This document shows, piece by piece, positions 1 to 38,579 of a DNA stretch of 64,000 nt. Location: positions 21,219,501-21,283,500 of the forward strand of contig OX344749.2 in assembly GCA_947034885.2 (NCBI GenBank), read 5' to 3'. This stretch comes from Thuidium tamariscinum. Its lineage: Eukaryota; Streptophyta; Bryopsida; Hypnales; Thuidiaceae. A program made the translations under genes and the position numbers. The notes beneath the pieces were generated by a model. It was not told the DNA's origin, ran no database searches, and worked only from the letters and a program-made list of their open reading frames with translations. Numbering within the stretch: position 1 is the stretch's first letter; every line of letters begins with the position of its first letter.

Positions 1-506
1 CATATCGATAACTCTATTGCTATGTCAATTAGATTTTTAAAATGAAATTGTACATTAATTGGGAAATCCTTCTTACCCCTAAAGGACCAAGGCCTTCTTT
101 TTGTCAATAAACTCTCGAAATTGCCAATTCTGTTGCATTCATCGAAGAAAAAAAAAAAAAAAAAAAATTTAAGGATCTAACCGTAGGATCGGGGTTGCTA
201 TATTGCGAGCTCAGGAGCGTGAGCCCAAGAGCCCAAGAGCCTAGGAGCCTAGGAATTTCTCAATTTTTTTTAGAAATTTGAAAAGTGGGGGCCTAAGACC
301 ATGGAAAAAAATTTAGGGTGGTTTACAAATAGGAAACAAATGAATTTATAACACCAAAGTCCAACAAAGGGCATAGAAAGGGTTTAGAAGTAAGAAAATA
401 GCGGATATACATTCAATACAATGATGGCTGATAGAAGCAAGTAGATACCAACACAAAATATCATATACGAGTATAGTGGGTTCAAAATCAAAGAGTCTAG
501 GGATGT

Positions 507-3500
507 CTAGGTACTACTAGAAGACCCTGATGTAGAGCTCTCACCACTCATCGATAGCTCACTGTCTGACTCTATAGCAAACTCATCTACAAACAATGAT
601 ACTCGTGGATCCGTTCTACGAGATCTAAAAGATGGTTGAGAATCTATGGTCTGAGAATGCGTGGCTACTGCCTCAGCATACACGGGTAACAAAAAAGGTT
701 TAGGAGGGCTAGGGAAAAACGTCGGTTTAGCAAAGAATAGTCGGGATGACTACATCTTCATTTCGGCTGCCTGCCTACAAAATCATGACACCAAATGTCA
801 GATACAAAACACTGGAAACTCACATTCTCAAAGTATTGAAAAAAAAAGAACTTACTTACTGAAGCGCGAAGTCTTCTGCAACTGACGAATTGGTACCACG
901 TCCTCATCGTCAGCAATTAGGATAGGTGTAGAGCTTTGTGGAGTTGGCTCTGGAGCTGAAATGGGGCGTATGAGTGGAGCTAAAACTGCATCAAAAATGC
1001 TCTTATCCTCCTCCAACGCTACAATGTGGCGGCCAGTAGCTCGACAAGCGTAGATGCTTGCTCCTGCAAAAGCCCAAACACATTAAAAGAAATGAGACAT
1101 GAAGTTAAAAGTTCAAATCCCAAAGACATGTGTTAAAACACTAAATCAAGTGATATACAGTAAAGAATGAAACCTGTAGAGGCTGTGCAATCCATGATGA
1201 TGTCACCAGGCGAGGTAGTTCCCTCAATGATCATTTGCATGAATGATCGTGCCTTTTCACGAGAACCACGCCATGGAATTGTACCATTCATTGCCAAATC
1301 CTCCTTCTCACAACAATTTAGAACAAGATCATCTCTGCCATTGTCAAGGTCGATGGCCTAGTGCGCTGGAACATCATGAAATGTAAAGCGGGACTTCTCA
1401 GACTTCACATACAAGTTCATTTTGAAGCGCACAGTCTGCAAATCCAATCCAGTACATTAGAATCAATGTAACATTTTCAAGAGGAAAAGAAAAAAAAATC
1501 TATTTGAAAAGACCAGAAGAACATACCGTGGAAGAACGGTCTAGTGGATTGGTAAGACGTAGTCTGTTCCACACCATCCACTCCATTTTCGATGTAAATC
1601 CATACTTCTGAGAGAAATCCAAAATATAAGATCGAATCTCACGACTTAGAGAGTACATGAGAACAAGGCCACCACCATCATGGAGGTAGTTCTCTGCGAA
1701 ATCAAAGATCGTCTGTAGCCACTCTTCTGAAAATCTATTCCAAATTGGAACAGAGGATGGCGGAATAGAGATGTTAGGGACAGGTAAGCCCTCAGGAACA
1801 TCTACTACAATGAGATCAACTAAGGCCTGCTTAGCAACAACACCATCGAAGAAACGATCCTTGTCCAAAGCCTGCTGCAGATAAGAGAAAACAAGGGAAA
1901 TTTTTATTAATAAATTCATACAAGTTCAAGACCAACACAAATAATTTTTCCACACTCACCCTTATACTATAAAGAAACAACATGTTCATAGTTCAAAGCA
2001 TTGACTACATAGAGAATTACCTTTTCCAGAAGGGAGAGAACCATCGTGAAAGAATCGGGGATAGGGCCATCATCTGAACCAAGCAAATTGGTGAGAGATT
2101 CATTGAGAATGCATTCATCCACATTGGCATCCACAACCGCAACCGGAGCCAAAGTCAAATTGCCTTGTTTCATCTGAGATTTTGTAAGCGAGAAGCCCGA
2201 GGAAGTGGGATTAGCGGCCCCATCACTTGTCGCATGCTCCACAGGAGTAGCCTCTGCCTTGCGTTTCTTCCCCTTCCTCTTCTCCTTTGTGTCGCTCTTC
2301 GCTTTCTCAGACAATTTCTCTCTCCTTCGCACCTCGGTGTCTTCTAGCTTCTTCTTGGCCGCCTCCCACTGCTCCTCTTTCTTCTTATTCTCCAACTCCC
2401 GCTTCTTGATGGCCTTGTCACGAGCCTCACCTTCCAATCCAGAGAACTCATCAACCTCCGACACCACAACAACAGAATCCTTGATACTTTGGAAGAGCGC
2501 CAGTTCTTCAGGTGCTGTAAATCCCTTGCTACAATCCAAGTACCACGCACCAAGTTGAAGATGGCCAACTGGCCAAAACTTCAATTGAGTGGGTGAAAAC
2601 ATACAATCAGATGATGTCGAGTCACGCCACGTGCGTAAGAATGGGGGCAAATCTGACTTGGAGATAGCTTTCTTCCCATATAATTCAAATGTAAAGTATC
2701 TGAAGAAGTAAAACACAACAGAAGTGAATACCAAAGAAAAATACAAATCATGAAATGAACAACCATATTGTGCTCATACTAAATCTTGGTTAGGTAAAAA
2801 AAAATGAGACATCAATGATAAAACGTGATGGAAGCAATAAAAAACTGATGCTTCTGTGATCATGAGTTATGGCAATATGAACATTACATTCCAAAGTCAT
2901 TGCCGACATTCCAAATTCCTCCTAAGAACTAAGGTAAATAACCAAAGGTGAAAATCAAAATGAAGTGAAAGAACTACCTGTATAAGACCCGTCTCACGGC
3001 AAGAAGGGAGCCCTTATAGTCTTTAAAGGACTCAGATTTCTTGAATGCCTCAGCACCTTTGAAAACTCCGGGATATGAGTGCTCCCACAACTTCATCCTC
3101 CAAGACTCGATGTAGTCAGAAAGAGACATTGGCTCAGCGGGCACGTCCATGTTAACTTGGATGTTGTCAGACTTGAGGATGGTGTCATACAAATCAAGAG
3201 CTGCATCCTCCAACTACATACAAATGGGAATCATATCAGCACATCTAGAAAAATCATCCTTACGAAGCGTCTTAAATAAAAGCAAAATAAATGAAATGCA
3301 CATCCATACTTACCCCTGCAAACCATACCGCCTTCGATAAGAAAGATCCAATCTTATCGTCATTAGCTGGTCGGGGTGGAACTCGACGAGCTGCACGAGT
3401 AGGAGCGGATGAGTTTATCCACTTCAGCCACTTCACTTTGTGTTGTGGGCTAGCATTGGCAGTAGCAATAAGTTGAAGCTTGTCAAGCGTCAACTCCTGG

Positions 3501-4901
3501 ACACTATACAAACTCCAGTGCCTCTCAATCTGCAAGCATAAAACAACACATAAGAGAGTAGAATTGAACATAAGGTAGCAAAAATGATGACAAGAATTGT
3601 AAAGCTATAATGACGCACCTCTTTCAACCAGTCATCTCCCAATGCTGGATTAGCAACGGACACAATCTTAGAAAGCTTTTTATAAAGCTTGTCTGTGGCA
3701 TCCTTGGTAGCACTTCTCATAGCATTTGTAATACCAGCACTACATACATCTTCTGGGGCAGTCTCCTCTCGATACTTGCGAACTGCAGCATCTGATGCAA
3801 GAGATATTTCTTGCTGCCAAAACAAGAAAGAGTTCATGAGCAATTCGAATGTTATGACAAAATCAACAAATAAAACAAAATGTCCTTCGAAACTGACTTA
3901 CATACTAATAAGACAAAGTTTACATTGTCAAACCTGAAAAATGAATGTGGTGAATACATCCAGGGGCATCGTATACCAAGTCTTCCTTTAGGCGTGGCCG
4001 CCGCAAAGTCTAACTTCCTCTGGGCTCAAGAGCTCCGCAAACTTCTCAATGGACATGGTTCCATACTTACGAACACGATAGAGTGTGTGGACAAGGTTTG
4101 TCTTCACAAATGAATTCTCCGTGTGCCTTCACAAACAAACACACTATAAGCATTCCACAAGGTCAAAAGATATCTCTATACAAACAGTTGGTAATTAGAT
4201 AAGAGAACTCACTTGTTCACATCGTGCATGACTTGCATTGCTGTCCCAAGCCTATCCTTCGTGTCCAAGACGATTGAGTCCACTCGAACGTGCCACTTAG
4301 CTTCTCCACCGTGAAGCCTTTTGATATGCCTCATCCAAGCAGCATACCTGTGGTTGCCATCGCAAATGTAGAACTTGGCATCGACCAAGTGCTGCAACTC
4401 AATGTGACTGCGGAGCTCCTTGTTGAATTCATCATTCACTGAATTCCAAATCGGTCCCCATTGAAGCTTCTCATCTTCAGAAAATACACCAACCTCACCC
4501 TCCTCGTTTGAGACAGAAACATAAAATACTCTTGCTCCATCTTCGTACCCGTGAACATACTTTGTCTCCAACTCATCCACATCACAATCCAAGGTGGGCC
4601 GAACCATTGGCATGGGGACCATACGGCATAAAGGAATTGCCATTCGGGAGAGATGATGAGGAGAAATTCTCATACTAGAAATTGTTGATATTGAATCAAC
4701 GTTCTGGGATCTCCAAATTTGGTCCTCATCCTCCGGGGTGGGGACCGGTAGTGAACTTGAAGGAACGCCCTGCCCGTGAGAATCTCCTACTCCACCCTCA
4801 GAATTCGGTATTGAAAGAGCAGGAACTCTATGGTCCTCAATATCTTTTACTCCCGCGTCGGTAGAGGACAGAGATAAGGATGCAACCCGCGTATCATCCA
4901 C
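507..4901 (-). pseudogene. Transposon-borne ParB-like / beta-class DNA methyltransferase (N6-adenine or N4-cytosine type), two in-frame stops
   Basis: Ten exons join in phase: 4901-4213, 4126-3934, 3813-3619, 3529-3314, 3213-2978, 2699-2021, 1874-1527, 1435-1174, 1063-860 and 667-507, giving about 1,060 codons. Near residue 180 is YICDGNHRYAAW, a ParB/sulfiredoxin-fold motif. Residues 605-665 are a Lys/Glu-rich coiled coil ending in a KKRK nuclear signal. Near residue 755 DLIVVDVPEG stands where DNA methylases carry motif IV (DPPY). Near residue 930 DIIMDCTASTGASIYACR matches the SAM-binding DPFxGxG motif I and continues into the usual GRxxxxxEED element. The order IV then I is that of beta-class enzymes. 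In-frame stops are TAA at 3990-3988 and TAG at 1360-1358; either is one C-to-T change from a glutamine codon. The 5' exon is unresolved; an open stretch at about 5545-5460 ends in a usable donor in the right phase. Fused ParB-methylase proteins are known in phages and bacteria. The DVPE variant makes catalysis uncertain. Confidence 0.75.
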
Positions 4902-4976
4902 CTAATCATGCAGTAAGAACACAGATGGATTTTCGCAAAATCAGAACTCAAATATCGGACCCGGGGCGTGCGGCAA

Positions 4977-5395
4977 TCTGGGGTGGGGTGTGATTGCCCA
5001 CCCCGTTCGAAGAGCAGGGATCTGATTTTCTTTTAAAAAAAATGTCGCCACGGCCCCCCGTGATGGGCTCTCGGTGGCGAGAGAGCCCGGGGGTGCGCAG
5101 CGATCTGGGGTGGGGTGTGATTGCCCACCCCGTTCGAAGATCAGGGATCTGAATTTCATTTTAAAAAAATGTCATCGCGGCCCCCCGTGATGGGCTCTCG
5201 GTGGCGAGAGAGCCCGGGGGCGCGCAGCAGATTGGGGGTGGGGTGTGATTGCCCACCCCAGCGAAGAGCAGGGATTTGATTTTTTTTGAAAAAAAATGTA
5301 ACCGCGGCCCCCCTGTGACGGGCTCTCGGTGGCGAGAGAGCCCGGGGGCGCGCGGCGGACTGGGGGTGGGGTGTGATTGCCCACCCCAAACGCAA
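4977..5395. repeat. GC-rich tandem array, four copies of a 127-128-bp unit with two hairpins each
   Basis: Copies of the GGGGTGGGGTGTG start recur at 4980, 5107, 5235 and 5363, a period of 127-128 bp. Each unit holds two inverted repeats: GGGGTGGG with CCCACCCC around a short loop, and GGGCTCTC with GAGAGCCC around an 8-base loop. The G-runs could also form quadruplexes. Because the period is not a multiple of three, all frames stay partly open, and the long minus-strand ORFs here are artefacts of repetition. The array sits in the presumed 5' leader intron of the methyltransferase gene. Confidence 0.9.
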
Positions 5396-5459
5396 GAAAC
5401 AAACCAAAAATTACTTTGATCAAGATTAAAATTCAAGAGTATAGGCGTCATTTTCCTAC

Positions 5460-7276
5460 CTCGAGATCAGGTGGATCATTCTCTTTGTGGCGCACGGAGG
5501 TGGCTTCCGTCCTCACAATCGCCCCGCTTCGTCTCCATTGAATCTACCCCAACAATCTGACACCACCAGATTGTTTCATTAGAAGAATTCGCAAGAAAAC
5601 TTGTAAAAAGAAATCCAAAACGGAGGAATGCAATCACAAATGAGGAATCAGTATTTTGAAAAGTAAATTGATTGTGGGAATGCAGTGGTCTATGCAATCA
5701 GAATGCAGACCAAGAGGACAATGAGAACACGGGAGGGTGATTCAAAATCTCGAGGACGGTTGCAACAGCTTCTCCAGAGGGTGCACGCACAGCGCCGCGG
5801 TGGGAGGGAGGGAGGCCTGTCGAGGACCTACGCGCGCTGGCTCTGTGGAGGAAACCCTACTCGGGATCCCGCTGGGCTCAGGCCGGCGGGGTACAGTTTT
5901 TATTTTTTTTATTTTTTTTATTTTTTTTATTTCAATAAAATTAAATATTCTCGAATATTAATGAAGAATATCATAGTATTTGAATTGATTTGAACATAAA
6001 TAAAACCTATGTAATTGGAAATTTGGAAGACATATTGAATTCAATCGGTGTGCAATAGAATGAAACGGACCTTGCATAGATGGAATACCATGCATTGGGT
6101 TTGGTGAATAAAGAATCTTACATTGCACTGTTTAGTTCTGTTGACGTTCTTCTCCTAGATGTGAGCAAGAAATTTGGTGTCAATACTTGGGCAAGGTAGT
6201 CCACCATTCTCATTGACTCCATCTGTATAAGTATCTTCCGGCAACCCATGCATATCTTCTCCCTCATTCGGTGATGACTGAGCAATTTCAAAATGTCTGC
6301 GTCGATTTTCACGAGACATTCTCAAGGACTTCAAACTACTAAAGCATCGACTCATCCCCCTCTTTCTTTTCTTACCTATAGACTTCCTACTGCATTCGGG
6401 AGTGGATTCAACCATAATTTGGCGTCTCTGTAAAAACTGAATTCACCCAAAGATTGAATAACTCGTGACTTATAGATGGATACATGTCTACTCTAACGCT
6501 TACTTTCTATCTCCACAATGAATTAATCCATAGTGTGAAATCCGAATTTATATGTCTACAGGTTGACGTTGTCCGTTAGTATCTCTGGTTTCAATTTTTG
6601 AACTTCCGATTTCATTTGATCTTATATTTACGCTACAAGTGGATTTGGGTGTAGATTCGAAAGTCACCATTGTTATGGTATTTCACAAATGAATTTATTG
6701 GTCATTCCTTTAAGAAAGGACTGTTGTTCATGGATTTCTGATTCTTAATCTCTGAGCATTTTGCAACGGATTAGTCGATCCATTATGATCATACTATATA
6801 TATTTCAGTTACTAATATGTTGTAATTCTGAAATTCTAGGAGGCAAAATATTATCAGATTCTTGTCTGCATTTGTATTTACTATGGATTTACAAGGTGTG
6901 ATTTTGTCCCAGGTAAATCAAACTGTCTATACATGTATTTGTGTTCATTATGAAAAGTTAGGTTGCCTACTCAAAATTGAAACTCAAAAAGATTAATTGC
7001 ACTGTAAGCACATCTTGGACTGACAAGCGCAATATAACAAGATTTCGAAACATGATATTATTCCGTTCTTCAGTACTCATCAATGTTATTTTCATGGGAA
7101 TTTGATCCACTTAATGTCATTTTTACCTGATGTCCTCATTGGCGTTCTACAATTGAATTATTTTTAAAAATACTACAATTTCATGACTCCTAAACAAGAC
7201 TGCCTCTGCTTAAAGTCATGGTGCATCACAAAGAAGACTACATTCACTTTTCATTTTCGAGTACTGTGTTCATGCG
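5460..7276. promoter_or_regulatory. Divergent intergenic region between the methyltransferase and transposase genes
   Basis: About 1.7 kb separates the two oppositely oriented transposon genes and must contain both promoters. It includes a possible leader exon of the methyltransferase (about 5545-5460, minus), a T-rich run with three TATTTTTTTT units at about 5,896-5,930, and a small minus-strand ORF (6415-6155, 86 codons). That ORF has a basic, nuclear-signal-like GKKRKRG segment and could be an additional 5' exon. I could not place a TATA box or splice path with confidence. Confidence 0.4.
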
Positions 7277-10200
7277 ATGGCCTCAATCAGAGCAAATGGG
7301 CACGAGGTCCCTCTTCTTCTTTGTCTTGACTCCTCTGGTCTAGCGGAAGTTTCAAGCCACCTGCTTCATGTGCGATATGGTTTTGTTGAGTCTTCTATCT
7401 ATGTGGAGGAAGAGATACTTTCTGAATCTGGGACGCTTATCCACTCGATTCTTATCCGTAGAATTAGAAATGATGACGGACCTTTTTGGAGCTTAGGTGC
7501 AGGTCGTTATAAGGCATATGGATTAGCATCAGATGTCATGGTTTCTTCAACAGAAGTTTTGACGCCAGTGTCTGTGCCCGACGCAGCCTCTATTCCTACG
7601 TTGCGAGCCGTCAAGATAGAGCCCAATGGACTCTCGCCCTCTTCTCTTCATTACGGTCTTCCTTCATCAAAGGATGATGAAGGAAGCTTCTCTTGTCCTG
7701 TTGTTGAGTTGTCTAGTGATTCAGAGGAAGTCCCAAAGAAGTATAACAGCTCTACGTCCGAATCAGAAACCGTTGGGACTTCTGTCCACCTTGGCACATC
7801 TCAATCCGTTGGTATGCGAGATAGTAGTGCTGGTAGTTCAGTATTTTCTCGGCCTCCGTTGTATCCACAAGAACAAGGTAGTTCTAGTATTATAGAATCT
7901 CTGAAAAAGCTACGTAACATTCGAGGGTGCAGAAACGAGCTGGCTCAGATAGATTTTGATTCGATTGAGCGTAAGACAGTTCCTTTTCTTCCTACATCAT
8001 TCGACGGTGATATTGTCCTAGAATTGCCACCTTGTCGTTCATTACCCTTGTCCAGCTCTTCTAAGAGTATGACTGGCATGGACAAGCGATACGATGGTCA
8101 TACGTGGTGTCGCACGATGACCTCAAACATTCACAACAACCTTGGACTAAAATTTAGGAAGTCTTCATGCGCTGGTCACCTTATTTGTACGAACACATCT
8201 TGCGATTACATATCTAGGTGTTCAAAGAAAAACGAGACTGAGTGGTTGGGTAATACTACTACTCCGTTTCTCGTAGGGTCAATACCACCACGAGATTCTA
8301 CATTAGTGTGTAGAGTTTGTAAAGCTTCACCTACATGTGACAGTTTCTGTGACGCTAGAATCTACTATGTCGTAGGATCATCTCATATGACCCGGGCTTG
8401 CATTCACCTAGGCAATCATAACCACCCGGTTCCAGATGGTCTTTGTCGAGATTCAGTAGACACCATTTCTGGCCTTCTAGAAAAGGAGGTCGCAAAAACT
8501 CCTACAGCTAAATCCTCCGCAATAGCTTTAGCTGCTAGCAAGGAATTCTTGGATACGTTTTTGGTTCATTCAGGTGATTCTCCGAAAGAAATGTTGAAGG
8601 GGCCTGCCTTGGATGCAGTGATGGACAAGTTCCAGGTCTTAAGTTCTCCAAACGTTCGGAACATCATTGCCTCTTTTCGAAGCAATGGTAGTGGGGGAGG
8701 TGAGATCGACCGCTTACTTGCAATGAAGAAGTAGGCCAAGATCGAGTTCATTCACGACAGTGTATTTCCCGGACAAGGACAAGAGAAAGTTTATCTCTTC
8801 AAGATGCTAGTGGATGGCCCTGGCAGTGGAGTCGATCTCGTGAAGCGTATGCAAGCAGGTGGGGATCTAGAAAATTGTTGGCTTATGTTTGACCATGTTA
8901 AGCGTGTCAAAGGATGGACCACAATCGCTTGCCATGTTTATGATTCGATTTACTACAAGGTGATGACTATAGCGGTTTGCGACATGCAATCCGAGGACAC
9001 GGAGGGCCAGGCCATTATGTGGAGATGCTTGAATCAAGTTATGGAGAAAAATGGCTTGGACAATCCCAACTTCAAAGGCTTCATGGCAGATAGTGCTCCA
9101 GCAAATTGGAATGCTGTTAGGATCGTTTATGGGTCCGGTGATGCATCCATCAAAATGGTTGATAGAGAACGCACATGTCTTTTCCACTGGGCAACTTCTT
9201 TGAAACAACACACGGAGCGACTCATCAAGAGAGATATGCAAGCGCAACACGTGAGGCTTTGTAGAGATTACAAAGATGCAAAGACTCTAGATGAAGCGGA
9301 GAGCAAGTATCTTCAAATCAAGGCATGGTGGTATTCGTCCGGTGCAGCCTCTGAAGAGTCCCTAAGAGAGCTAGAGCTATGGTTAGCTTTTTGGCACTTC
9401 CGTTATCGCCAATGGGGTGGATTCATGGAGACAGTAAGTATTTTCATTTTTTTAATTTCTTCTTTTACAAAGTCCATGTTGTCTTCATCACAGCCTTAGT
9501 TTCAAGATTTTCACATATGAACTATTCCTACTTAGTGAACTTACCCCTCAGTTGCAACTGGGATCGTCCTCAGAATCCTATCTCGCCACCGAGAGGCCTT
9601 CACTGTAGGATTGCGGTTTCCCATTTCGTAGCCAATATACAACCTCTCATCTTATGGAAAGGGCCCGTGATCCACTGGTGATTGATTGATGTCGCGGCCT
9701 TGGCCCCCACTTAAACCACAGGTCTAAATGAAAACACTTGTATTTCCTAGCCGGATTTGGTTCTTTCTGTATTAATAGTCTAAAGTATCTTGGATATCTC
9801 AGGACAGTTCTTTCATGGTATTTGGTGAATGATTGTCCCTTTTTTAAAATGGCTATTGAGGATTTGTTATATTATTTTCATTTGTCACTTTTATTAACAT
9901 ATCCTATCACTGTACTTCCAGAGTTTGTCAGCAGACGAAGAAGCGGATATTCCATCCTGCAACCTATCGGAAACAATACACAACAAGTGGCTTCAAGCAT
10001 CTGGGAAACGTGGTACCGACTTATATGTTGCCACTTGTGACGACTGGATTCGAGCATTTATGCAAATGACTAATTATCGCGTGTACTTGAATGGTAGACC
10101 TTTTGGAACTGGACCGTCCCGACATGATCTAAAGTTAAAGCGAGCAGTAGCATCAATGGACGGGAAGAAGATTACTGATGCGTTGTGCAATATGCCTGGT

Positions 10201-11295
10201 GTGGAAGAACTGTGTACACGTATACCCCATTTAGAAGGAGAGGAAGTCTTTGGCTCCACAAAGCGCAAGCATGATGAGCCTATTGGGGCTGAAGGTGATT
10301 CTCACCGCCCAGATAAGGTCAATTTCTCTCACCCTAGAGTACAATTGAAATCTGGCACTGCTCTGAATGCATCTACAAATGAAGGAGATCTAGCGTTTCC
10401 TCATGTCATGCACGTTTTGGAGACGGATTGTGACCCCTCACAGTGGCACATTGCTCGCATTTCTGTAAAGTCCAAGAGGAAGTGCCATGCCATTCAAGCG
10501 CAGACGGAGGTGAAGTGCAAGATGTCCATAGTTCGAGGTTCTAAAGCTGTAGCAGCACCAATGTATAAAGGCCAGAAACGCGAGTACAAAGGTATGAATG
10601 TTGAAACAGATGAGTTCTGGTTTTGCCCAGACGACATTCAACGTTGCGTTATGGGACCTAGGAGGTCTCATGTCCTTAGTCGCCCTCAACTCCCTGAAAT
10701 CTGGCCTGTGATGTTGGGTACAAGTCTGACTTCTCATGAGATTATACTTTTTCAAGAAGCTGGGTTTCGCCTTCAAGAGCGCCCATCACTCTCTCCGCGT
10801 CGCTTGTTCACATCTTCCAGACTTTTCGAGGTTTTGGAATGGAACTACTCAAAGGCAGCTCACTCCGACAAGCCTCCATGTATTCGAAATGGAAAAAACA
10901 TTCGGAGGAATGACAAGGCACCCACTAATGATCATCAAAATCAATGGGAGAGTGCAAGAAATGTCACGGGTAATATCCTTGGAGTGAACATCCTCCCTTA
11001 TCCAGGCCTTGGAGCTGTTATCACTTTACAGTCTGGTGTAGAACCTCATCACATGGTATATCGTGTTACTATTTCAAATTTCCCAGCTTGCACTTGCTTG
11101 CACTTCATTGGTATGTTGTCTGCATCCATCGGCAAGAGAGGGAAGTATGTTAACTGCAAACATTTATATTATATTTTCCGTTATTTGTGCAAGGTTGACC
11201 CAAAGAAGGACAAGTTCATTCATGCCCCTAGCTTTAGCATGGATGAGATTATGACACTACTAGAGAAAGCAGGAATGATAAAAATAAAGGCCTAA
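7277..11295 (+). pseudogene. MULE-type transposase with WRKY/GCM1-like N-terminus and SWIM zinc finger, one in-frame stop
   Basis: Two exons, 7277-9433 and 9922-11295, join in phase 0 across a 488-bp GT-AG intron (donor GTAAGT, acceptor TTCCAG), giving about 1,175 residues. The N-terminal part carries a Cys-rich segment ending in IHLGNHNHPV, typical of WRKY/GCM1-FLYWCH DNA-binding fingers of MULE transposases. The core shows a first acidic residue in LMFDHVKRVKGW, then GFMADSAPANW and a CLFHW motif (CxxH), matching the D-D-CxxH arrangement of the MULE family. Near the C-terminus CTCLHF and CKHLYYIF form a SWIM finger (CxC..CxH). It would cut and paste the element at its inverted repeats in the nucleus. 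A TAG at 8732-8734 interrupts an otherwise continuous frame and is one C-to-T step from CAG. No frameshift was seen, so the decay is recent. Confidence 0.85.
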
Positions 11296-13771
11296 TTCAG
11301 TAGTACTAGCATTCAACACATCTATACCGGATTATTAGATAACTCTACGCCATCCATGATTGCATGTAGCACCCGCTACACCTATTGAGGATGACTATTT
11401 GTTCCTCATGAAGTCTTCGTAGGCCTTCATTTGTATTGAATCTTCAAGGAATATATCTTTTTCTGCAGTGACTACCCTTATTTTTCTAAAACTCTTATGC
11501 CATTTTGTTGTAACCTCCTAACCCTAATCCTTGACCTCAAATTGTATGATAAATTTATAATGAATTATTTAGAACCACAGATTACTGTATCAATTATGTA
11601 CTTCCTTTCAAATCGCTCAAGAACCCTAAACCAATATATGTCAATCTCCTATTCTCCGTATTTTATGCCATAAGAATCCAACAATTTATGATTAGTTAAT
11701 GAGGCCATCAACCTGAAATCGAGGGTCACTCTTTCACAGGAGCCAAAACAGTGCTTGGGAGCTTTTTTAAATCCAGTCCAAAATTCAACGTACTGTTTGA
11801 CATTGCAATCGCCCCACATTCTTTGTCTTCAATTCTAAATCATAGGAAAAAGTCTTAAGTAAAAGGTGTACATGAAGTAGTATATGTGAATAAAACCTAA
11901 ACCCTAAACCCATGGTTCAAAGTCCACGGTTATAGGGTCTTTGTCACACCCTAAACCAATGAACTAGGGGTACATGTATACTACTCGGGTCACCTTAGAT
12001 TAGAAGTCCATTGAATTTTTTTTGGAATATTGAAAAAAATTACTATTTACTTCAACTAAATATCTGGGCTCGCATAATGTACGCTCACAGCTCTTGGGCT
12101 CACGCTTTTAGGCTCACAATTTAGCGTCGTTGCCGTAGGATCTTGTACTTAACTTGATTGAGATTAAGTGGTAAAAATTTCATGAAGTTTGACCGTACAG
12201 ATTGGAAGATATGAGCATTCACAGTGGGAAATACAAGTTTTTTGAACTGCGGTTTGCAATTTCAGATGACTTTGACTGGAATTTGTATTAAAAAATCGCA
12301 TTGAAGACTTTGAATCTATAATTTTTTGTGTCAAGAAATTGAGTTGAGAGTTTAGGAAAAAAATTTCACACAAAAACACTTGATTTTCATTCTTTTGCAA
12401 TTGTTAAGTAGATGTAGGTCCAAGATTGAAAGAAAAAACGAATGGTTAATAACTCTAAGATGGGATCTAAATACAATAATCCCAATGGTGAGATTGTTTT
12501 AGAAAGTAAACCTTACCCTGTCCAACAATTTGTTTTGAAAAATAGTGAAAACTGCATTTTTAAATGAATCATGTATTCCTATAAGTTATTTTTTCAAGAA
12601 ATTGTTTAGATTGACCGAAAAACAAGATTGTCCATAACTTTCTCATTGTAAGTCCAAAAAGAGTGAATCAAAGCTTCACATGTAAGCAATATTATATTAT
12701 TTTAGAAAAATTAAATAAAAAAATTAAATTCTGACTTTTTGCAAAAAATAAAATTCTGCCCGGCGAATGAAAATTTAGGCTTTTTGTGGTATAAGGTTTT
12801 CTCCCGGTCACCAATTGAAATAAAATTTACATTCCCATGAAGCTAATCAGTTTTACTATCTTATGAGAAATTTTCAAAAAGATTCATTAGAAATTGAGGT
12901 CAAACAATTATTTAAATAATTTTAATCTTCATAATAATAACATAATAGTTTTTAAAATAAATAAATAAACCTCATATGGTTAAATTTTAAAAAAAATTAT
13001 TGTGTTTAACAATTTGAATAAATTTAATTGTTTACTTGCTAAAAGTTACCATTACAAATAGTTCATATTTTTCTACTTCATTGTTGGGAACTTGGGAGTT
13101 GGAATGTAAAAGGAATTTCCTATAGACCAAAGAACGCAACATTTGGATACTATATTATATTTTTATGTTTCAAAATAGTTTTATTAAAATATGCTAGTCT
13201 ACTTTTCAAGCTACTATTTCATATCTTATTGACTTTTCAAAGAATTTGAGCTCCTTCAAATAATTTTCAAAAAATTGTAGGAACTAGGAAGAGTGAAGTT
13301 GAATTTGGCATTTGATTGAAGTCATTTTATATTTTCGCATAAATCAATTCTGTAAATTAGTAGCACATCGAATCCTCCATCTTCCTTTCAAACATCTAAA
13401 ACCTCTTTCTATAGCCATTCTAGTGTTGGTCTGCTAGATAGTATGAAATTTCAATGAATTTTTTTCCTTGATAGTCCATCTTATACATCTTTGAATGGTC
13501 TAATTAAATTTGCACCACCTCCCACTAATTTGGAAGGTAAAAAATTTGTAGAAAAACAATGTTTTTATTTTGGAAGTAAAATAAATTGGAAGAAAATAGA
13601 GAAACACAAACAAAAATTTTGTTGTTTATTTTTCTATAAAGATTAGAGGTAGAGAAAAGATAAGCACGTGTATTTTTAAGTTTTTAAAATTTTTTTTAAT
13701 TGATTTCATTGAGCATTGAGAGAATCTAAGAGAACATGAATTAGAAATTGCGCCCTAGAATCCAGCCCAAG

Positions 13772-13878: not shown

Positions 13879-15709
13879 GGCCCTTAATACCTTGTGCTGT
13901 TAGAGGTTGAATATTTTGCATTTCTTTATAAGTCAATAAAAAACAGAATTTACACCAATCAAGAAGAATTTCGAACCGTGACAATCGAAATAGTATTTTC
14001 GTGAGGTATTGAAAGTTTATATTCAACATTTATTTAAAAATAATCGGAATTTTTTCTTTACTTCGATTGGATGTGTACTGTCTTTTTTTTGTGCTTTACA
14101 TTATCTTCTAATTCTTCTTTGATACTAACTTCAAAACAATCGTAATGTTAATATTTTATAACACATTTGGGTTTTGTCCTAACCCATTGGGGTTATAGGG
14201 GTTCAAAATGTATCGGCCTTTTGAACTTGTTCATTATTTGTTAAAAGAAAACAATGTGAAGATCTACTAAAGTACTAATTCTACAGTCTCAGGAGTCCTA
14301 TATATTCAAGGACTTTGGAAGGTTTGGGATATTGAAGTGTTCAAGAAGTACACTTCAACTAAATTAGTGGCAACAAATTCTGGGCCTTCTTCGGTATGGG
14401 AAAATTGATCGGGTTTTTGGTAATATAATTTTATTTCAATTGTAATTTGAGAGAAAATTTATTCCCCCTAAGGCCCAATGTAGGCAATAGAAAGAAAAAC
14501 AAGCATGATTTTGAAAATTACATTTTTTTTTTAATAGCAGTTTTTTCTACGTAGAGAAACTTAATTTATTTTCATTGCCTAGGACGTTGTGACGGCTATG
14601 AATCTTCTTGTTTTTCAAGCAATAACAGTAGACTTTTTAGAAGAAGAAGCATTACATCCATTGTAATAGTTGAATAGAGAATTGCATAATTTTTTTTTTT
14701 TTTTTTTTAAAACGGTTTCACCATTGGAATTAATGCGTTTCAATTTGATGCAAGACCTGTCACCAATTTAGTTTTTGTGTCCATTTGAAGCTTTGATTCA
14801 TCCTATTTGGACTAATAATGAGAAAGTTATGGACAGTCTTGTTTTTTGGACAATGTACGCATCTTCAACCCTAAACAACTTGTAGAATTTATTTTTGAGT
14901 GCAATTTTAAATTTGTACCATTTTTTTTTTCTTAAAGCTTAAGTTTGTTTTCAAGAACAATCCCACCGTTCGGATTATGGTTTTTTTATTCAATATAAGG
15001 GCTATTAAGAATTCAGTTTTTTCTTCAACTTTGGACCTACTTCTACTTAACAATTTTTTTTAATGTGGAAATCAAGTGTTGGCATTGTAAAATTTTTTTT
15101 ACGAACTCTCAACTCAAATGCTGAAGATAAAAAATTTTGACCTCATGGTGTGTACTGCAAAAAAAATCCAGAAATGGCCATCAAAGTCACCTGAAATTGC
15201 AGGGCGTAGTTGAAAAAAACTTTGTTTTCCAACTTTGAATGCTCATATCTTCCAATCCGTACGGTCAAACTTCATGAAATTTTTACCACATGTTGTTAGA
15301 GAAGTGAAGTACAAGATCCTACGGTTAGATTCTAAGAAAAAAAGTGTTCTTAGGTTTCTTGAGTGATTGCAGCAGAAATGGCAGTTTTCAGTGGTTTGAT
15401 AGTCAAAAAATGCCTTGGTAACTTAGGGGTTAATTTGTTTTTGGGGCAAACATAATGAACACACAAACTCACAACTTTGGAAATAAGGAGGAAGCATAGA
15501 AGCTTCACAAAGAAAATGGGACATAATTGGATCGGAATTTACAAATAGGCATACTGAAAATTTATATTCAAAAAATGGCGAACATCCTCATATCGTCCTT
15601 ATGCCAATCTATATCCTATGGCAAGAATATACAAAAATCGATTGCTAATTACTATATTTCTATTTTAAAGCAACCATTGTTTCGCTACAATCTTCCAAAC
15701 CCTAAACCC

Positions 15710-16780
15710 TCACTCAAATTCCGAATCGGTGTCATCTTTGCGAGTTGGGCCAATTGAACCAGATCCAAAAGTCCCGAGAAATGGTCCACCACCCCATATG
15801 TCTCCAGATCCGCTTGATGCACCTCCATGCCCATAATTTCCATAGTAAGGTCCTCCAAAAGTTGGAGGAGGAATTGAATCATCACGCTGAGATCCCCTGT
15901 GCCGTGTATCATTATAAGAACTACTTCCAGAGAATCCAGGATAGTACTGAGAACTACCTTAGTTGGAACCATAATCACGTGTGGTTCCTTGGCTACCTTG
16001 GTAGTTGCCATAGCCACCTCGAGGGTCATTACTGTAGTGTAGATCACTTTGGCGATTTTGGGTCCCATAAACACTATGGTCATGTTGATACGATCCATGA
16101 TGCCCATGTGGTCGACCACGATCCTCGAGACTTCGTTGCATTGCATCTCGCATTTCTTGCTCGTATTGGATGTCTTCGCGTTCTTGTCTACGCCGAGGTA
16201 TCTCTCCAAATGACACAGGTGCTGAAGCATCCTTCTCCTCCTCCTCCGACCAATCATCCTCAGCATCCGGCAATACAACCGGTGCATATCCAAGTTGGCC
16301 TCGGTTAGACCACTCTGGCATACAATCACTTATACCAGTCCAACTCGTATAAATAACAGCATCAGTACGATGCAGTTCGTGGACATTTTTGCCGTAAATT
16401 GTGCGCCAATCCACATCTTTGTGGAGCACAATCTCTGCCCAAACCATGGCCATGTTGGAGTAGTTCATCACATTCGGTTTGGAGTCACGTATTTCAGCTG
16501 ACCGTGTGACTTCCTCATACCGGTGGACAAAGTGCTTGCTTAGGCACGTCGAAATTTGTCCCTCCCAACGACGAACTTGCTTTTCAGCACGTTCTCTTGA
16601 CCACATTTTTGAGAGGTGCGTCATTTTGACGTACTTCTTGCATGTTGTGCAGTCCCAAGATTTCTTCGGCTCCTCCTCCCATCCAGGTTCTGCTACACAC
16701 AAAGGGTTTGCCTAATCCTCCCAATTCATGTCTTGGGATTTGCCCTTGGAACTAGATTTTGGTTTATCGTTGCGAGGCAT
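15710..16780 (-). pseudogene. Unknown transposon-associated protein, CxxC finger-like N-terminus and Gly/Ser-rich tail, two in-frame stops
   Basis: An ATG at 16780 opens a frame that runs for 356 codons to a TGA at 15712-15710, broken only by TAG (16714-16712) and TAA (15961-15959). Each is one C-to-T change from a glutamine codon. The N-terminus is basic and Ser-rich (MPRNDKPKSSSKGK). It is followed by WDCTTCKKYVKMTHLSK, a short CxxC...H pattern that could bind zinc, a helical charged region, an acidic EDDWSEEEE stretch, and a long low-complexity tail rich in Gly, Ser, Tyr and Arg. I do not recognise the family. Its place beside satellite-like repeats and its decay suggest a mobile-element gene, perhaps a relative of hAT accessory proteins, but this is only inference. 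Confidence 0.5.
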
Positions 16781-16978
16781 GGTAATAAAATTACCCCAAA
16801 GTCCAGAATTAGGATGATGGGAATTTCAGGGCCGCCCAAAAGCAAATAATAATTAAAACTCAATACTATGAAAGTATTCAAGTTTTAATCACAACCATCT
16901 CACCAAAATGAAAGGGGCTCACAGAGCTCGAGGCACTGGATTACCCACTTCGGAAGGCGGACGATTGTGCCTGAATGA

Positions 16979-17380
16979 GCCGTCCGCGATGCTACTTATA
17001 CTCGCGGACGGCGAGCGACGTCTCCATCGAGATCAGACGGCCTTCAGAGCGGACGGGAGATCGTGCGGCCAGAAGTTGTCGTCGTCGGTGCGGACGGCCT
17101 GCGGACACGCGGACGGCATGCGGACGGCCGTCCGGACGGGCGGACAGGGTGCGGACGGCCTGCGGACGCTCTCCACACCATCCGCCCGTCCGCACTCTGT
17201 CCGCCCGTCCGCAAGCCGGCGGCGTGCCCGTCCGCACTATGTCCGTCCAAAATGCCGTCCGCAGAAGTGTCCGGTCGTCCGTCCGCTGGACGTACGTAAA
17301 AAAAAATTTCAAATGTCAATGGACGTCCGAGGGTTAGCGCCTACGTCCCGTGGACGTCCAGACGTCCCGTCATCCCTGAT
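16979..17380. repeat. Left GC-rich GGACGG block
   Basis: Degenerate copies of GCGGACGG run to about 17,175 and then switch to the opposite strand sense (CCGTCCGC) up to about 17,300. The block opens with a perfect 11-bp inverted repeat, GCCGTCCGCGA at 16,979-16,989 and TCGCGGACGGC at 17,002-17,012. All six frames stay open for 80-170 codons because of composition, so the ORFs here are not genes. Confidence 0.8.
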
Positions 17381-18579: not shown

Positions 18580-19115
18580 CCACGGAGCTCAGGCCGTCCA
18601 TCCTGACCGTCGACGGCACGGCTAGGCCGTCCATCGAACCCAGGCCGTCCATCCTGACCGTCGACGGCACGGCCAAGCCGTCCATCGAACCCAGGCCGTC
18701 CAACCTTCCTCTCAATCCAAGCCGTCCTTTCCAAGCATAGACCGTACCCAGACCGTCGATCTGGAGGCGTCCGTCCGGGCCGTCCACTGGACGTCCTGTC
18801 CATCGGGGCCGTCCATACCCCGCGAGCGGGACCGTCCCCTAAAACCGTCCACCGGATCCGGACCGTCCGCAAAACCGAGAGTGTCCATCCAAGCCGTCCA
18901 GTCAGCCAGGACCGTCCATCGGAACTGTCCACCGAGTACGTCCTTCCAGGCCGTCCACGGAGGTCGTCCGTGAGGGCGTCCATGACCGCTGTCACGATTT
19001 TTCATCCTCTGTCGCAGATTCTGTCGTGAATTTCATCCTGACGGACGCTCGGCTCCCCGTCACGTCAGCAGACGGACATCCTGACGGACGGACGCGACGC
19101 GACGGAAGCAACCCT
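18580..19115. repeat. Right GC-rich CCGTCC block
   Basis: Many degenerate copies of GGCCGTCCA occur. An internal direct repeat of about 60 bp (around 18,591-18,650 and 18,648-18,707) contains CATCCTGACCGTCGACGGCA. Near 19,060-19,110 the sense flips to GACGGACG. The motif is the same as in the block at 16,979-17,380, so the two probably belong to one repeat family or one element. Confidence 0.8.
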
Positions 19116-26487: not shown

Positions 26488-28222
26488 AGATCATGAAAAT
26501 AGAACCCATGTTAACATTCAAATCCAATGTTCAATTACTTGGAATGTTTTTAAGAATTTCAAATTGAAATAGAAACTAGACTCAATAATTAAGGTTCATC
26601 TTATAAGTTGGCCTCACATTCCAAAAGATCATCAACATGGCTCAAATTCAGGTCAAGAACAAGGAGTCGAGATGCCAAACTACAGTAGAAGGACATCGCC
26701 TCTGATGTGGGGTACTCACATCGGACGTCCACCTAAAGTTGTCCTCGTGTATGCCATGACAAGAAGAATCTTCTGTACCAAACAGAGAAAACTGGATGAA
26801 AACTTTCTGTATTGCATCCCTCCAGCAACCTTTGTTTCGTCATCAGAAAGCCTTGTGCATGATTCGGCTCCTGGCAAGCGTTCGAGGGTTGAGGAGTTAC
26901 CGAAATTGCGGGCGAAATTGTCGATCGTTGCTTGATTTTCTCAGTTCTGGGTGGGTCTGCCACTGGTGCAATGCAAAAGATCGATCGGTCGACTTTCTCT
27001 CAATCTATCAACCTCGGAATGAATGAATGAACACATATAATGAAGCCGCAGTGGTTGCATTTTCCATCACCGAGTGTCTGACTCGTGCTCATCAGTTTTT
27101 GTTGCTCGATCATTTGAATTGAATGCATGCCTCGGGGTCCAAAATTCGGGACGGAATGGCCGTGTGACGAGCGAGCGAGCGTCGTTGAGTAACCGAAGTT
27201 CTTTCGGAAGTGATGCCATGCCAGTGGTACACGTGTGAAGAAGGCGAAGAAGCAGGAAGAGCCGAAGAGGGATCTCTTTTCTAATACAGGAGCATTGATT
27301 TGCAGTATGGCCGGTGCTCTGACTGCCGTGCTGCTGTAATGTTCTTTTGAAAAGCTAGATCGCAATTGTACAACAGAACAATCAAGGGTTCTTCCTTCCA
27401 TTGATGCGTCAATCAAGAGTTGACCAGTAGATTTCTGCCATAGCCAAACTTGCCTATGTGTACGTACTTTGAGCAACGGGAGCTCGATCCCACGAATTGA
27501 AAAACAGCTAGATTCCGGCCAAGATCATATGCCAGACCCTTTATAACTTGGTCACATGTGGATTGGTTCTCCTGGGTCATCATCCTTCAGTTTAAGTCTA
27601 ATTCAAATTAAGTTGATCTGACAGAAACTGTTCATACTTATGTGACGAGATGCCTTCCTTGGGAGGGAAGTGTGGACAACTTGTAGACGATCTAAGTTTT
27701 AGCATCTTTACTACGATTTTGAGCTTGCAATTTCCATTGCATGTGAAATTAGGTCACCTGCTTTTCGCTAACGATTTCTTATAGCATAGTTGTAGAGATA
27801 GATTCGCCGCGAATTCCCGAAAATAGCCTTGAGAGACGTCGGTCGCTTTCGTATCAAACCGTGGAAAGCTTTCTCGGAGCTTCTATGTATTTAGCTCCCG
27901 ATTGACGCATCAACGGAAGAGCAATTACGGACTGCAACGTCGTGAAGATCGTCAGCTCTTCTTTCTGGTTCGCTATTTAAGATTCTGTTTTTCATGTTCT
28001 TTCATGAGGGTCCGACCTCTATTGCGTTTCAGATCTAATCTTACGATCTTGAGATTTTCAGGGATGGCTTCAAAGCTCTTCAATGGTGAGGTCACCTGAA
28101 TGCAATTCAGCTCGGGCAGTGGCACGTTGACGACGACAGTGAAGCTTCAGCTGCAATTTGCAGCGAACTCCTGTAGCTTCGAGCTTCCCTTTTGCAGATA
28201 CTAGCTTAATTACAAGTGCTCA
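26488..28222. other. Upstream region of the MATE gene, no supported gene
   Basis: This 1.7-kb stretch has a gene-like base composition but no recognisable protein. An 87-codon ORF (26,672-26,935, +) and a 158-codon ORF (27,476-27,000, -) lack any known motif. The last 400 bp probably contain the promoter and 5' leader of the MATE gene. Confidence 0.4.
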
Positions 28223-31200
28223 ATGGCGATGACGATCATCGAAGAGTTCGCCGAGCCGCTCATTAACGGGGACCTGCACCCGTCAACACTCTCCTCCTCG
28301 GGTTTCGCGGTGGCTGAAAACCACATCGCCTGCACGAAGCCCTTGAGCAATGGCCATGGAAACAACCCCGTGAGCCACGACCCGGAGGAGAAAGGCCTTT
28401 CTTGGTGGGTGTGGGGGGAGGTTCGCGAGCAACTCTGGCTAACAGGACCCATCATGGGCACGTATTTTCTGCAATACATCATGGTTATAGCCACAACGAT
28501 GTTCGTGGGGCATTTGGGCTCTCTCCCCCTAGCGGCTTTCACCCTGGCCACCGCCTTCGTCGACATGACGGGATTCACTGTGCTGGTACTACTTACTTCA
28601 ATCCCTGCAACCTCAAATTCGACGTTAATCAATGGCAGATAATTTCAGTGATTCATGTGCAGTCTCCGTCACCAAGCCGAATCCTCATTCCTCAGATTAG
28701 AACTATATACATATTCAGTACATCGTGGTTGATATTTTCTGTGTTTTAGGGCAATTGTTGCGCAACTGTACGTGTACACCAAACTAAAATCTAGACCTGT
28801 CCTACTTTTCTAAGGAAGAACTGCTTGCACATCGATCTCAGTTTTCGCAATTGAGAGACCGTTAATGTAACGAATGTTTCCGCCTGATTACCTATTAGTT
28901 CTAGTGCCCCGGGAACTTGAAAGCTTAGGTTTCAGAGCTCGTGCCTGGCTTGTGGCACTTGAGCACTACAGATTTGGCAGTCGATAAGCATGTCAAATAA
29001 TCGAATAAGGCCATCTGAAGTTGGCTATGGCGTCCAATTGTTATCCCAATTTGGAAGCCAAAACTGTAGTGCTCCTATGAAATTATATGGCACCTGCAAT
29101 TGGCCATTGCACCTGAATTATTACCCGAGTTGTGCTGATGTGATCACAGTGGTGATTGAAGGTAGGTATGGCGAGCGCACTGGAGACACTCTGCGGACAA
29201 GCCTACGGCGCAAAGCAGTATCACCTCCTGGGGATCTTCCTCCAACGTGCGATTTTCATCCTCACATTGTCCTCCATCCCCATCTCTCTCATCTGGCTCA
29301 ACATGGGCAACATCCTCGTCGCCCTAGGGGAAGATCCGAAAGTAGCTCAAGCAGCCCAATCCTACACATACTGGGTCCTCCCGACCTTGTTTGAGTATGC
29401 ATTTCTCTTCCCTCTCATCAAGTTCTTCCAGACGCAGCGTATCGTCGTGCCCTTGATGCTGGCCGTGGCGGTGTCAACGTTGCTGTGCCATGTGCCTTTG
29501 TGTTGGCTGGTGATTGACAAACTTCGCGTCGGGCTCAACGGCGCCGCTATCGCCTATAACATCTCCAGTCTTGGGAACGTGTGTCTGTTAGTCTTGTTTG
29601 TGAGATTCGAGAAGCGATTCGAGAAGACGTTCACGAAGATCTCATTGCGGGAGGCGTTGCGAGACTTTGGGGATTTTTTCGGACTGGCTGTTCCGTCGGC
29701 CACCATGATTTGGTATGGGATTTTGACTCACCTTGACTTGGATGCAAAAGTTATGGAGGTTCAAATTTTTTGTGGGGTGGATGATCTGAAACTACAATCT
29801 CATGTTTTTGTAGCATACGCTCTTGTTGTCAATACATGGACTTCTGGACCAAGGTTTGGGTTTTTAGAGCATTAGAACTAGGTTACTGTTGGGATTGGGT
29901 GTTACTAACTTAAGGAAGAAGACCATCACCAGTCAATTTTGACAAATATTAGAAGAAAATTTTGCAGATTGGGACTACCCTAAGTTTCACTGAATTTCCA
30001 AGAGATTGATAATAGATGCGTCGAAAAACTAATTTGTGGGAGGAGGCCAGGGGTCATGTATTTGTACATTTGTCAACAAATAGGTTTAGCAAGGATCATT
30101 GCATGCCCGATCACCATGGTGATGGATCTGCTGTTTTAACTTAAAGCCTGAGCATTTTGTGATGTTGGTCTTTGATGCAACAGCATGGAGGCTTGGTCAC
30201 ATGAAATTCTGACCCTGTTGGCGGGGCTGCTTCCCAACTCCCAACTAAACCTCTCAAGTTTTGCCATCTGGTAAAGTTACTGCACCAAGAGAATATGGTA
30301 CACTATGTTCTGTGTATCAGTGGGTGAAAATTAATGTGACCACCAACAGTTTTGTCCGAAGAAGTTGTACTCTTCTTTGCAGCTTTCTAAGAAAGTCAAA
30401 ACTTTCCGTCATGCCGAATTCGAAAAGTGCAGGTTACTGTGGCCGCACGCCACCAGTGTGGTCCAAATTACATGAGCAGTGCATCTGGTGAAAGACTTCG
30501 AACTGTGCTCATCTTTACTTCATTTTTGTTGGGGTCTTTGTCATGTTGTGGACACTCAGGGATCATGAGATTTCAAGGATTTTCGGTCTTCTTCACGGAC
30601 ATGGCAGGCTCAAGACTATTCCATGCCGTTCTTTCGGACCACGATACATCCCGCTCCTGAACGGGATTTAAATACAATGAGAACGGAATTATTTCAGGGT
30701 TATCTGATGATGTAGCCGGCAATTATAACAATTTTGTTAAACAGACCGGCCCTTCCTGTGGAATAAATGCTTGAAGAGCCAGCGTGGAATCGTGAGCATA
30801 CTAACAGAGTCATGCTGCTCATTGTTTGCAGTATGGGTTTGCTAACCTTATCCAATATGGTTGCCCTTGCTCTCGGCATTACCGCCAGGTAATACATTCG
30901 TAAGAACGACTTCAATTTCTCAGTAGAGAATCCATGTAGACAATGAGCCCATTCTTCTCCATTCTCTTCACAGTTGAAGGTGAAAGATGCGTGACATAGA
31001 TTCAGCCACAAGTCATTTTGTATGTAAGCCACAAGTCATAATATCAGATACTACACTACTAATAACATGTAATGTCATAATTGAGTTGCTAAAATATGAA
31101 AGACATTATTTCAAACTTTCGGCATTTCAATTTCTAGCTGTATTGGGGTGTTTGCAGCGTTCGAGTAGCGAATGAGCTGGGAGCAGGAAAGGCTCGTGCA

Positions 31201-37627: not shown

Positions 37628-38579
37628 TTAACCCCTAAATGCTCAAACTATATTTTTTGGCAATGTAGTCATTTTTGGTAGCTCACTATGAATGGAGTTT
37701 TAATTTTTTTCTTTGAAATTTTCACACAATATGTGTCCGAGGAGTAGCTTTAAGGCCCAACAATTTTCATAACTTTTGACAACATGGATAAAAAGTTATT
37801 GCATGACATGTGATTTCTCTTACTTGGCGGGCAGCCTAAGCACTTGAAAAAACTTCTTCAAAAATCCCTTTTTTTAAAATTTAAAATTAAAAATTGGTTC
37901 TTTCAATTTTTATCTACTTGGAAAGCTTTGAATCATTCTATTTTGATTTATGAGATGAAAGTTATAGGAGTTTTAGTTTGAAGGTAGTTTGTGGGAAGTT
38001 ATGGAATCTCTACTCCAAAATAAACTTTGAAGTCCATTATTTTACTCAATTTTTAACATTTTTGAAAAATAATTAAAAAAATAGGTGAAGATTGTCTATT
38101 ACAACATTATGACCATTGGAATTGGAAATTTTCAATTTCACAAATTAATTATTACTATTTTAGTATTTTGAATCATTTTCTACCTCTTTCTACATACTAG
38201 TTTTTCTCTATATGTTGTACAACTCCAAATGATTTGAAATTATTTAGGCATGTATCCAACTTGACTAGAAAAATGAATCCAAACAATAACAACCTTTTTG
38301 AACTTTTTTTCATACAAAAGTGAGCTACTGAAATGCAGCTGCCCAGATTGTTGCAGGGACAAAAAATGGGTTTTTGACAATTCAGTCACTATTTTCTTGC
38401 AATCTACATGGTGGAAATTTCTGAAATTTTTTCCACATGTTCTCAAACTAGTGTACTATAAGATTCTACAGTTATAGCTCTTTTAAAATGTTTTTTTTTA
38501 AAAGATTTGGGTCTTGTACTAGAAGTGATAGTTTTTGAGCATTTTTGGCAAAACATAGGCAAATATTTTTAGGGGTCAA
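37628..38579. mobile_element. First of two direct copies of a roughly 960-bp TTAACCCCTAA-family element
   Basis: The copy begins with TTAACCCCTAA and ends with TTAGGGGTCAA. It shares long blocks with the copy at 38,925-39,900, for example ATGGAGTTTT, GGAAAGCTTTGAA with TCATTCTATTTTG, and ATATGTTGTACAA. The block AAAGCTTTGAATCATTCTAT also matches the inverted repeat of the outer transposon at 14,792, so all belong to one family. There is no coding capacity. Confidence 0.7.

What the first reader, a model, noticed from the sequence alone, without database searches (positions are those of the whole stretch)
507..5550. A ParB-like domain fused to a beta-class DNA methyltransferase, encoded inside a plant Mutator-like transposon
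Seen: a gene of at least ten exons whose joined frame carries YICDGNHRYAAW (ParB-like) and, about 750 residues later, a SAM-binding motif DIIMDCTASTG with the right following elements. Known: ParB plus N6/N4-methylase fusions are common in phage and bacterial genomes, and DNA 6mA/4mC methylases are rare in eukaryotic transposons. Inference: the element captured a prokaryote-derived methylase and may use it to mark its own DNA, to resist host silencing (as VANC does for VANDAL MULEs) or to assist transposition. It lies divergent to the transposase within the same target-duplication-bounded unit, so the two probably travel together.
Basis: partly seen in the sequence, partly recalled or inferred. 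Interest (0 to 1): 0.92.

Follow-up and report, generated by a model that had tools for sequence, protein, structure and literature searches.

The report
Plant transposon with ParB-methylase-like gene
A DNA transposon with more than a hundred relatives in a land-plant genome carries, besides its transposase, a second gene joining a ParB-type domain to a DNA-methylase-type domain; related fusions are known from algal transposons, but here the methylase's usual catalytic motif is replaced by a different, conserved one.

Summary
Window 190-12132 is a transposon with inverted ends, an exact 9-bp target duplication and a diverged empty-site repeat. A gene of at least ten exons on the minus strand (about 5540-507) lies divergent to a transposase (7277-11295). 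Exon 2 has the ParB/sulfiredoxin fold; exons 8-10 are homologous to beta-class DNA amino-methyltransferases. Of the 44 closest ParB-exon copies listed genome-wide, 43 have the methylase exon downstream and 35 a divergent transposase. The gene is under purifying selection. This copy is broken (three in-frame stops); 4 of 20 close copies have no stop in the nine exons tested. I favour a DNA-binding accessory or anti-silencing factor whose methylase fold has lost or changed its chemistry. [quoted passage not shown] New, as far as I searched: a MULE-like carrier, a land plant, and the conserved non-canonical motif.

The parts
181..189 (.). target site duplication, left (CCGTAGGAT)
   Evidence: exact repeat at 12133-12141; 9 bp, with the following C belonging to the element, from copy L034/L071; empty-site paralogue at 15181-15430, minus
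190..231 (+). left terminal inverted repeat (36 nt found by program, about 42 by eye)
   Evidence: same end in 16 of 20 close copies, with different flanks
507..750 (-). exon 11 (C-terminal, acceptor tentative)
   Evidence: open frame
860..1063 (-). exon 10: continuation of motif I and the following strand of the methylase fold
1174..1435 (-). exon 9: motif X region and motif I (DCTASTG at the exon end); in-frame stop at 1358-1360 in this copy
1527..1874 (-). exon 8: motif IV position, reads DVPE (about 1791-1802) instead of DPPY
2021..2699 (-). exon 7: lysine/glutamate-rich stretch with a basic KKRK run
2978..3213 (-). exon 6
3314..3529 (-). exon 5
3619..3813 (-). exon 4
3934..4126 (-). exon 3; in-frame stop at 3988-3990 in this copy
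   Evidence: boundary supported by P0039
4213..4901 (-). exon 2: ParB/sulfiredoxin-fold domain with DGNHR
4963..5387 (.). tandem array, 127-bp unit, 3.3 copies, in intron 1
   Evidence: its core occurs 2-11 times in 17 of 19 close copies
5460..5540 (-). exon 1 (partial; no ATG in the joined frame)
7277..9433 (+). transposase exon 1; in-frame stop at 8732-8734 in this copy
9922..11295 (+). transposase exon 2, with a SWIM-like CxC...CxH finger
   Evidence: SWIM E=0.099, below cut-off
12091..12132 (-). right terminal inverted repeat
   Evidence: same end in L071
12133..12141 (.). target site duplication, right

Best explanation
A degraded member of a large family of MULE-like DNA transposons that carries two divergent genes: the transposase and an accessory gene. 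The accessory protein (about 1100 residues) has an N-terminal ParB/sulfiredoxin-fold domain, a middle part of about 500 residues of unknown fold, and a C-terminal beta-class methyltransferase-fold domain. Shown: architecture, homology, linkage, purifying selection, and a conserved non-canonical motif IV. Inferred: it acts in the nucleus as an element-specific DNA-binding or clamping factor that licenses or protects the transposon (anti-silencing or transpososome assembly), with the methylase fold used for DNA or SAM binding, or altered chemistry, rather than as an ordinary 6mA/4mC methylase. Inferred and weaker: the tandem array in intron 1 could be a binding site.
Against: No DNA binding, CTP or SAM binding, transcription or localisation was tested. 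Over all 140 ParB-exon rows used, only 71 have a listed methylase exon, 85 a listed transposase and 45 both (lists are capped). A changed motif IV does not prove inactivity: D is kept, and part of motif I (last glycine, acidic residue after it) survives in most. Low dN/dS shows constraint, not which function. Pairs in the dN/dS medians are not independent; below dS 0.12 the median for exons 8-10 is 0.50, with 13 of 130 pairs at 1 or above, and one divergent-subfamily pair (L058/L067) has 0.82. Fold-search TM-scores are low, about 0.3 by query length.
Confidence: 0.55

Rival explanations
1. It is a working DNA N6-adenine or N4-cytosine methylase with an unusual active site that marks the element's own DNA to resist silencing or aid transposition (the first reader's view, and the proposal in the Ectocarpus paper for its relative).
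For: Methylase fold homology; constraint on exons 8-10; precedent: passages of PMC8885841 describe a bacterial N4-methylase working in bdelloid rotifers and one recruited in Marchantia spermiogenesis.
Against: Canonical motif in 0 of 35; the aromatic position is Glu in 35 of 35; motif I lacks the first glycine of GxG. In rotifer N4CMT, replacing the catalytic Ser and Tyr abolished activity (passage).
Confidence: 0.25
2. The methylase-like domain carries a different chemistry or substrate (for example another base position, RNA or protein), which the conserved D-x-x-E serves.
For: D25, E28, L30, V32 invariant among 9 diverse members, as are W99, N103, D151, D152, N156 and W171.
Against: I know of no relative with this motif and known chemistry, and none was sought systematically; nothing biochemical tested.
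Confidence: 0.15
3. Passenger host gene fragment caught by a Pack-MULE, without function for the element.
For: This copy is broken.
Against: Same exon order in 17 of 20 close and 6 of 7 divergent copies fetched; linkage with orientation; dN/dS well under 1.
Confidence: 0.03

Closest known systems
ParB-methyltransferase accessory protein of Sola1-1_Ec32 in the brown alga Ectocarpus (PMC12477816, passages seen)
   Same: ParB-like plus DNA methyltransferase domain in one protein (1104 residues there, about 1100 here), on the strand opposite to the transposase, inside a large DNA transposon
   Different: Sola-1 superfamily and brown alga there; here MULE-like ends and a land plant. That paper predicts N4mC/N6mA activity; here the catalytic motif is replaced.
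Green and red algal transposon proteins cited by that paper (Iyer 2011; Petroll 2025; neither read)
   Same: reported there as similar proteins
   Different: not examined
Beta-class DNA amino-methyltransferases, DpnA-type and CcrM
   Same: sequence homology, order motif IV before motif X and motif I, SAM-side sequence
   Different: DPPY to D-x-x-E; DPFxGSG to mostly DCTASTG; long N-terminal ParB part; introns
VANC of Arabidopsis VANDAL MULEs (recalled; the Vandal anti-silencing protein is mentioned in a passage of PMC12730594)
   Same: idea of a MULE-encoded second protein acting on the element's own silencing
   Different: no sequence relation tested; VANC has no ParB or methylase fold as far as I recall
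METTL14-type pseudo-methyltransferases (recalled)
   Same: methyltransferase fold kept under constraint without a working catalytic motif
   Different: different methylase class; analogy only

Membership tests
ParB/sulfiredoxin superfamily | three-dimensional fold | tested here: met
ParB/sulfiredoxin superfamily | GxxR-type nucleotide-binding motif | tested here: met
   G, N, H, R of DGNHR in 47 of 48 rows with one gap, D in 46; that this equals the ParB motif is recalled; sequence profiles alone are weak (phrog_1033 in 14 of 48, best E 0.0066; DUF1015 in 10 of 48, best E 0.0084)
ParB CTPase clamp | CTP binding and sliding, HTH binding to parS | not testable with these tools
   none
Beta-class DNA amino-methyltransferase | sequence homology and motif order IV, X, I | tested here: met
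Beta-class DNA amino-methyltransferase | catalytic motif [DNS]PP[YFW] | tested here: not met
   0 of 35; D-x-x-E in 35 of 35
Beta-class DNA amino-methyltransferase | motif I DPFxGSG | tested here: not met
   DCTASTG in 23 of 35, variants of it in the rest
Beta-class DNA amino-methyltransferase | methyl transfer to adenine-N6 or cytosine-N4 | not testable with these tools
   none
MULE (Mutator-like element) | 8-11 bp target duplication and terminal inverted repeats (range recalled) | tested here: met
   9 bp, exact, in the window and in L034/L071; TIR arms 83% over 36 nt
MULE (Mutator-like element) | MULE transposase domain | tested here: inconclusive
   no Pfam match; D, D and CxxH pattern seen by eye and kept in L072; genome search with PF10551 not answered; fold model unusable, pLDDT 45
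SWIM zinc finger | CxCx(n)CxH | tested here: inconclusive
   motif by eye; PF04434 E=0.099, below cut-off
ParB-methyltransferase transposon accessory proteins (algal) | both domains in one protein, divergent to a transposase inside one element | tested here: met
   compared with the description
ParB-methyltransferase transposon accessory proteins (algal) | common descent with the algal proteins | not tested
   algal sequences not held
VANC-type anti-silencing factor | sequence-specific demethylation of its own element | not testable with these tools
   none

The most novel reading that the evidence does not exclude
A transposon family in a land plant keeps, under purifying selection, a ParB-fold protein with a methyltransferase fold whose active site was rebuilt (D-x-x-E for DPPY). 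It could be a nucleotide-switched DNA clamp with a pseudo-methylase reader, or a new nucleic-acid-modifying enzyme, used by the element against host silencing.
Probability: 0.5. Interest if true: 0.82.

Novelty: new variant of a known kind. Interest (0 to 1): 0.62.

Why it matters
If the reading holds, the algal class of ParB-methylase transposon proteins also occurs in land plants and in another transposon superfamily, where genetics is practicable. Recent copies, some without stops in the exons tested, and diverged subfamilies make the open question, what such proteins do for transposons, directly testable. The rebuilt motif also warns against calling these genes 6mA/4mC writers from domain names alone.

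Tried and rejected
Search of the joined exons in the 5.8-billion-protein set: none at E<=0.001 among the 8000 candidates scored. The methylase part alone: one relative among 214 candidates. Viral contigs with exon 2: none confirmed. PDB by sequence with exon 2 or its alignment: no ParB; only the fold search showed it. Pfam MULE: no match. Own genome with PF01555: 0 matches at E<=0.001, with 11 of 14 control genomes positive; the gene is split in exons and below cut-off, so this shows only that no canonical exon-sized match was found. Phage records with the methylase part: 114 records at E<=1, all under 60% identity; best E among the 12 rows shown 8e-4. First TSD reading of 10 bp was replaced by 9 bp after L034/L071. 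Right ends of two further copies were missed by the small fetch (L069, L070). Transposase fold model unusable. A word search for a repeated binding site outside the array gave nothing convincing. Papers: listings; passages only of PMC8885841, PMC12695648, PMC12477816, PMC12730594, PMC3627910. None of the nine listings showed me a land-plant ParB-methylase transposon; that is the whole basis for saying I found none in print.

Dropped rows: I used 140 ParB-exon rows (its exon-3 rows and unlisted matches left out, of 197 matches), 100 exon-8 rows (exon-9 rows and unlisted ones left out, of 214) and the 150 rows (806 candidates, 150 scored). In A1 I used 47 of 72 homologues plus the window. In A2 I used 9 of the 35 sequences with exon 8; these rows hold only residues aligned to the window's exons, so insertions relative to the window were left out, which also affects. 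Motif counts exclude 4 of 39 sequences without an exon-8 hit in the fetched stretch.

Full report
WHAT IS THERE. The stretch 190-12132 is a DNA transposon with both ends. Inverted arms (36 nt at 83% by program, about 42 by eye) are flanked by CCGTAGGAT at 181-189 and 12133-12141. I first read 10 bp, but a second copy (L034, right end L071) has ATCTTGCAC on both sides with the following C belonging to the element, so the duplication is 9 bp. A diverged copy of the surrounding repeat at 15181-15430 (minus) runs through the insertion point without the element: 194 of 252 columns identical. The left end recurs in 16 of 20 close copies with different flanks.

THE GENE. On the minus strand the joined frame runs from about 5540 to 507. 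Nine introns have GT..AG at both ends, a tenth has a donor and a tentative acceptor. P0039, a related protein from elsewhere, reads through the second intron into the same exon 3. No transcript was available. Exon 1 has no ATG in the joined frame.

COPIES. The genome is held as 363 Mb in 19 contigs; the copies listed lie on C1-C11. NAC-domain matches (27; none in 14 control genomes) mark it as a land plant, the link of that domain to plants being recalled; the species is unknown, and few NAC genes suggest a bryophyte or lycophyte (inference). ParB exon: 197 matches; methylase exons: 214; transposase: 150; these are lower bounds by the tool's own note. With 140, 100 and 150 listed rows, 71 of 140 ParB exons have a methylase exon downstream on the same strand within 9 kb, 85 of 140 a divergent transposase within 12 kb, 45 both; among the 44 closest (window included) it is 43, 35 and 34. 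Wrong-strand controls gave 0 and 0, transposase downstream 1, positions shifted by 200 kb 0 and 0. Of 20 close copies fetched, 17 have exon 8 inside the fetched stretch; the other three have it further off. Four of 20 have no stop in the nine exons tested. Of 7 divergent copies 6 have the methylase exons. Six introns probed were all found in 17 of 20 close copies; identity over the introns found ranges from 82 to 99%, so the gene moved as DNA and some copies are young.

THE ACTIVE SITE. The alignment to DpnA places DVPE on DPPY without a gap. In 35 of 35 sequences with exon 8 (window, 17 close and 17 divergent ones) the first residue is D and the fourth E (DVPE 17, DMPE 6, DCPE 5, others 7); none has DPPY. 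Motif I is DCTASTG in 23 of 35. P0001, from another contig, has DVPE too. Nine diverse members keep D25, E28, L30 and V32 invariant. This is not decay: median dN/dS for exons 8-10 is 0.15 (8 pairs, dS 0.4-1) and 0.33 (20 pairs, dS 0.12-0.4); for the ParB exon 0.07 (21 pairs) and 0.35 (94); for the middle exons 0.13 (13) and 0.28 (34). The closest pairs (dS below 0.12) have medians of 0.50 for exons 8-10 (130 pairs, 13 of them at 1 or above), 0.50 for the ParB exon (94, 7) and 0.31 for the middle (163, 2), as expected if inactive copies drift. Pairs share sequences and are not independent.

MECHANISM. Shown: a two-gene element whose accessory gene is selected. Inferred: the ParB-fold domain binds element DNA, perhaps as a nucleotide-dependent clamp; the methylase fold contributes DNA or SAM binding or a changed chemistry; the result licenses the element or counters silencing. 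A 127-bp tandem array in intron 1 (4963-5387) has its core in 17 of 19 close copies at 2-11 copies and in 1 of 10 more distant ones, within the 1.5 kb held on each side; it is a candidate site, no more.

KNOWN OR NEW. [quoted passage not shown] So the architecture and the hypothesis are in print. What I did not find in nine paper searches is a land-plant case, a MULE-like carrier, or the altered motif. The class MULE rests on ends and duplications; Pfam did not recognise the transposase.

Noticed in passing
window 15181-15430 (minus), 38395-38499, 39687-39822: Diverged copies of the repeat into which the transposon inserted (77% at the first; the others weaker).
   Followed up: partly
window 16970-17300 and 18590-18990: GC-rich stretches full of GGACG/CCGTCC-type repeats giving long open frames on both strands, probably spurious.
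   Followed up: no
window 28205-31494: MATE transporter gene in several exons (Pfam MatE in two of the open frames).
   Followed up: partly
window 55257-56156 and 59149-59922: RING-finger protein and dihydrouridine synthase (Dus) genes.
   Followed up: partly
window 15962-16708 (minus): 250-residue open frame, no Pfam match; possibly another transposon's gene.
   Followed up: partly
contig C11 of G000: The shortest of the eleven contigs with listed copies (17.5 Mb) seems, by eye and uncounted, to hold many of the rows; possibly a repeat-rich chromosome.
   Followed up: no
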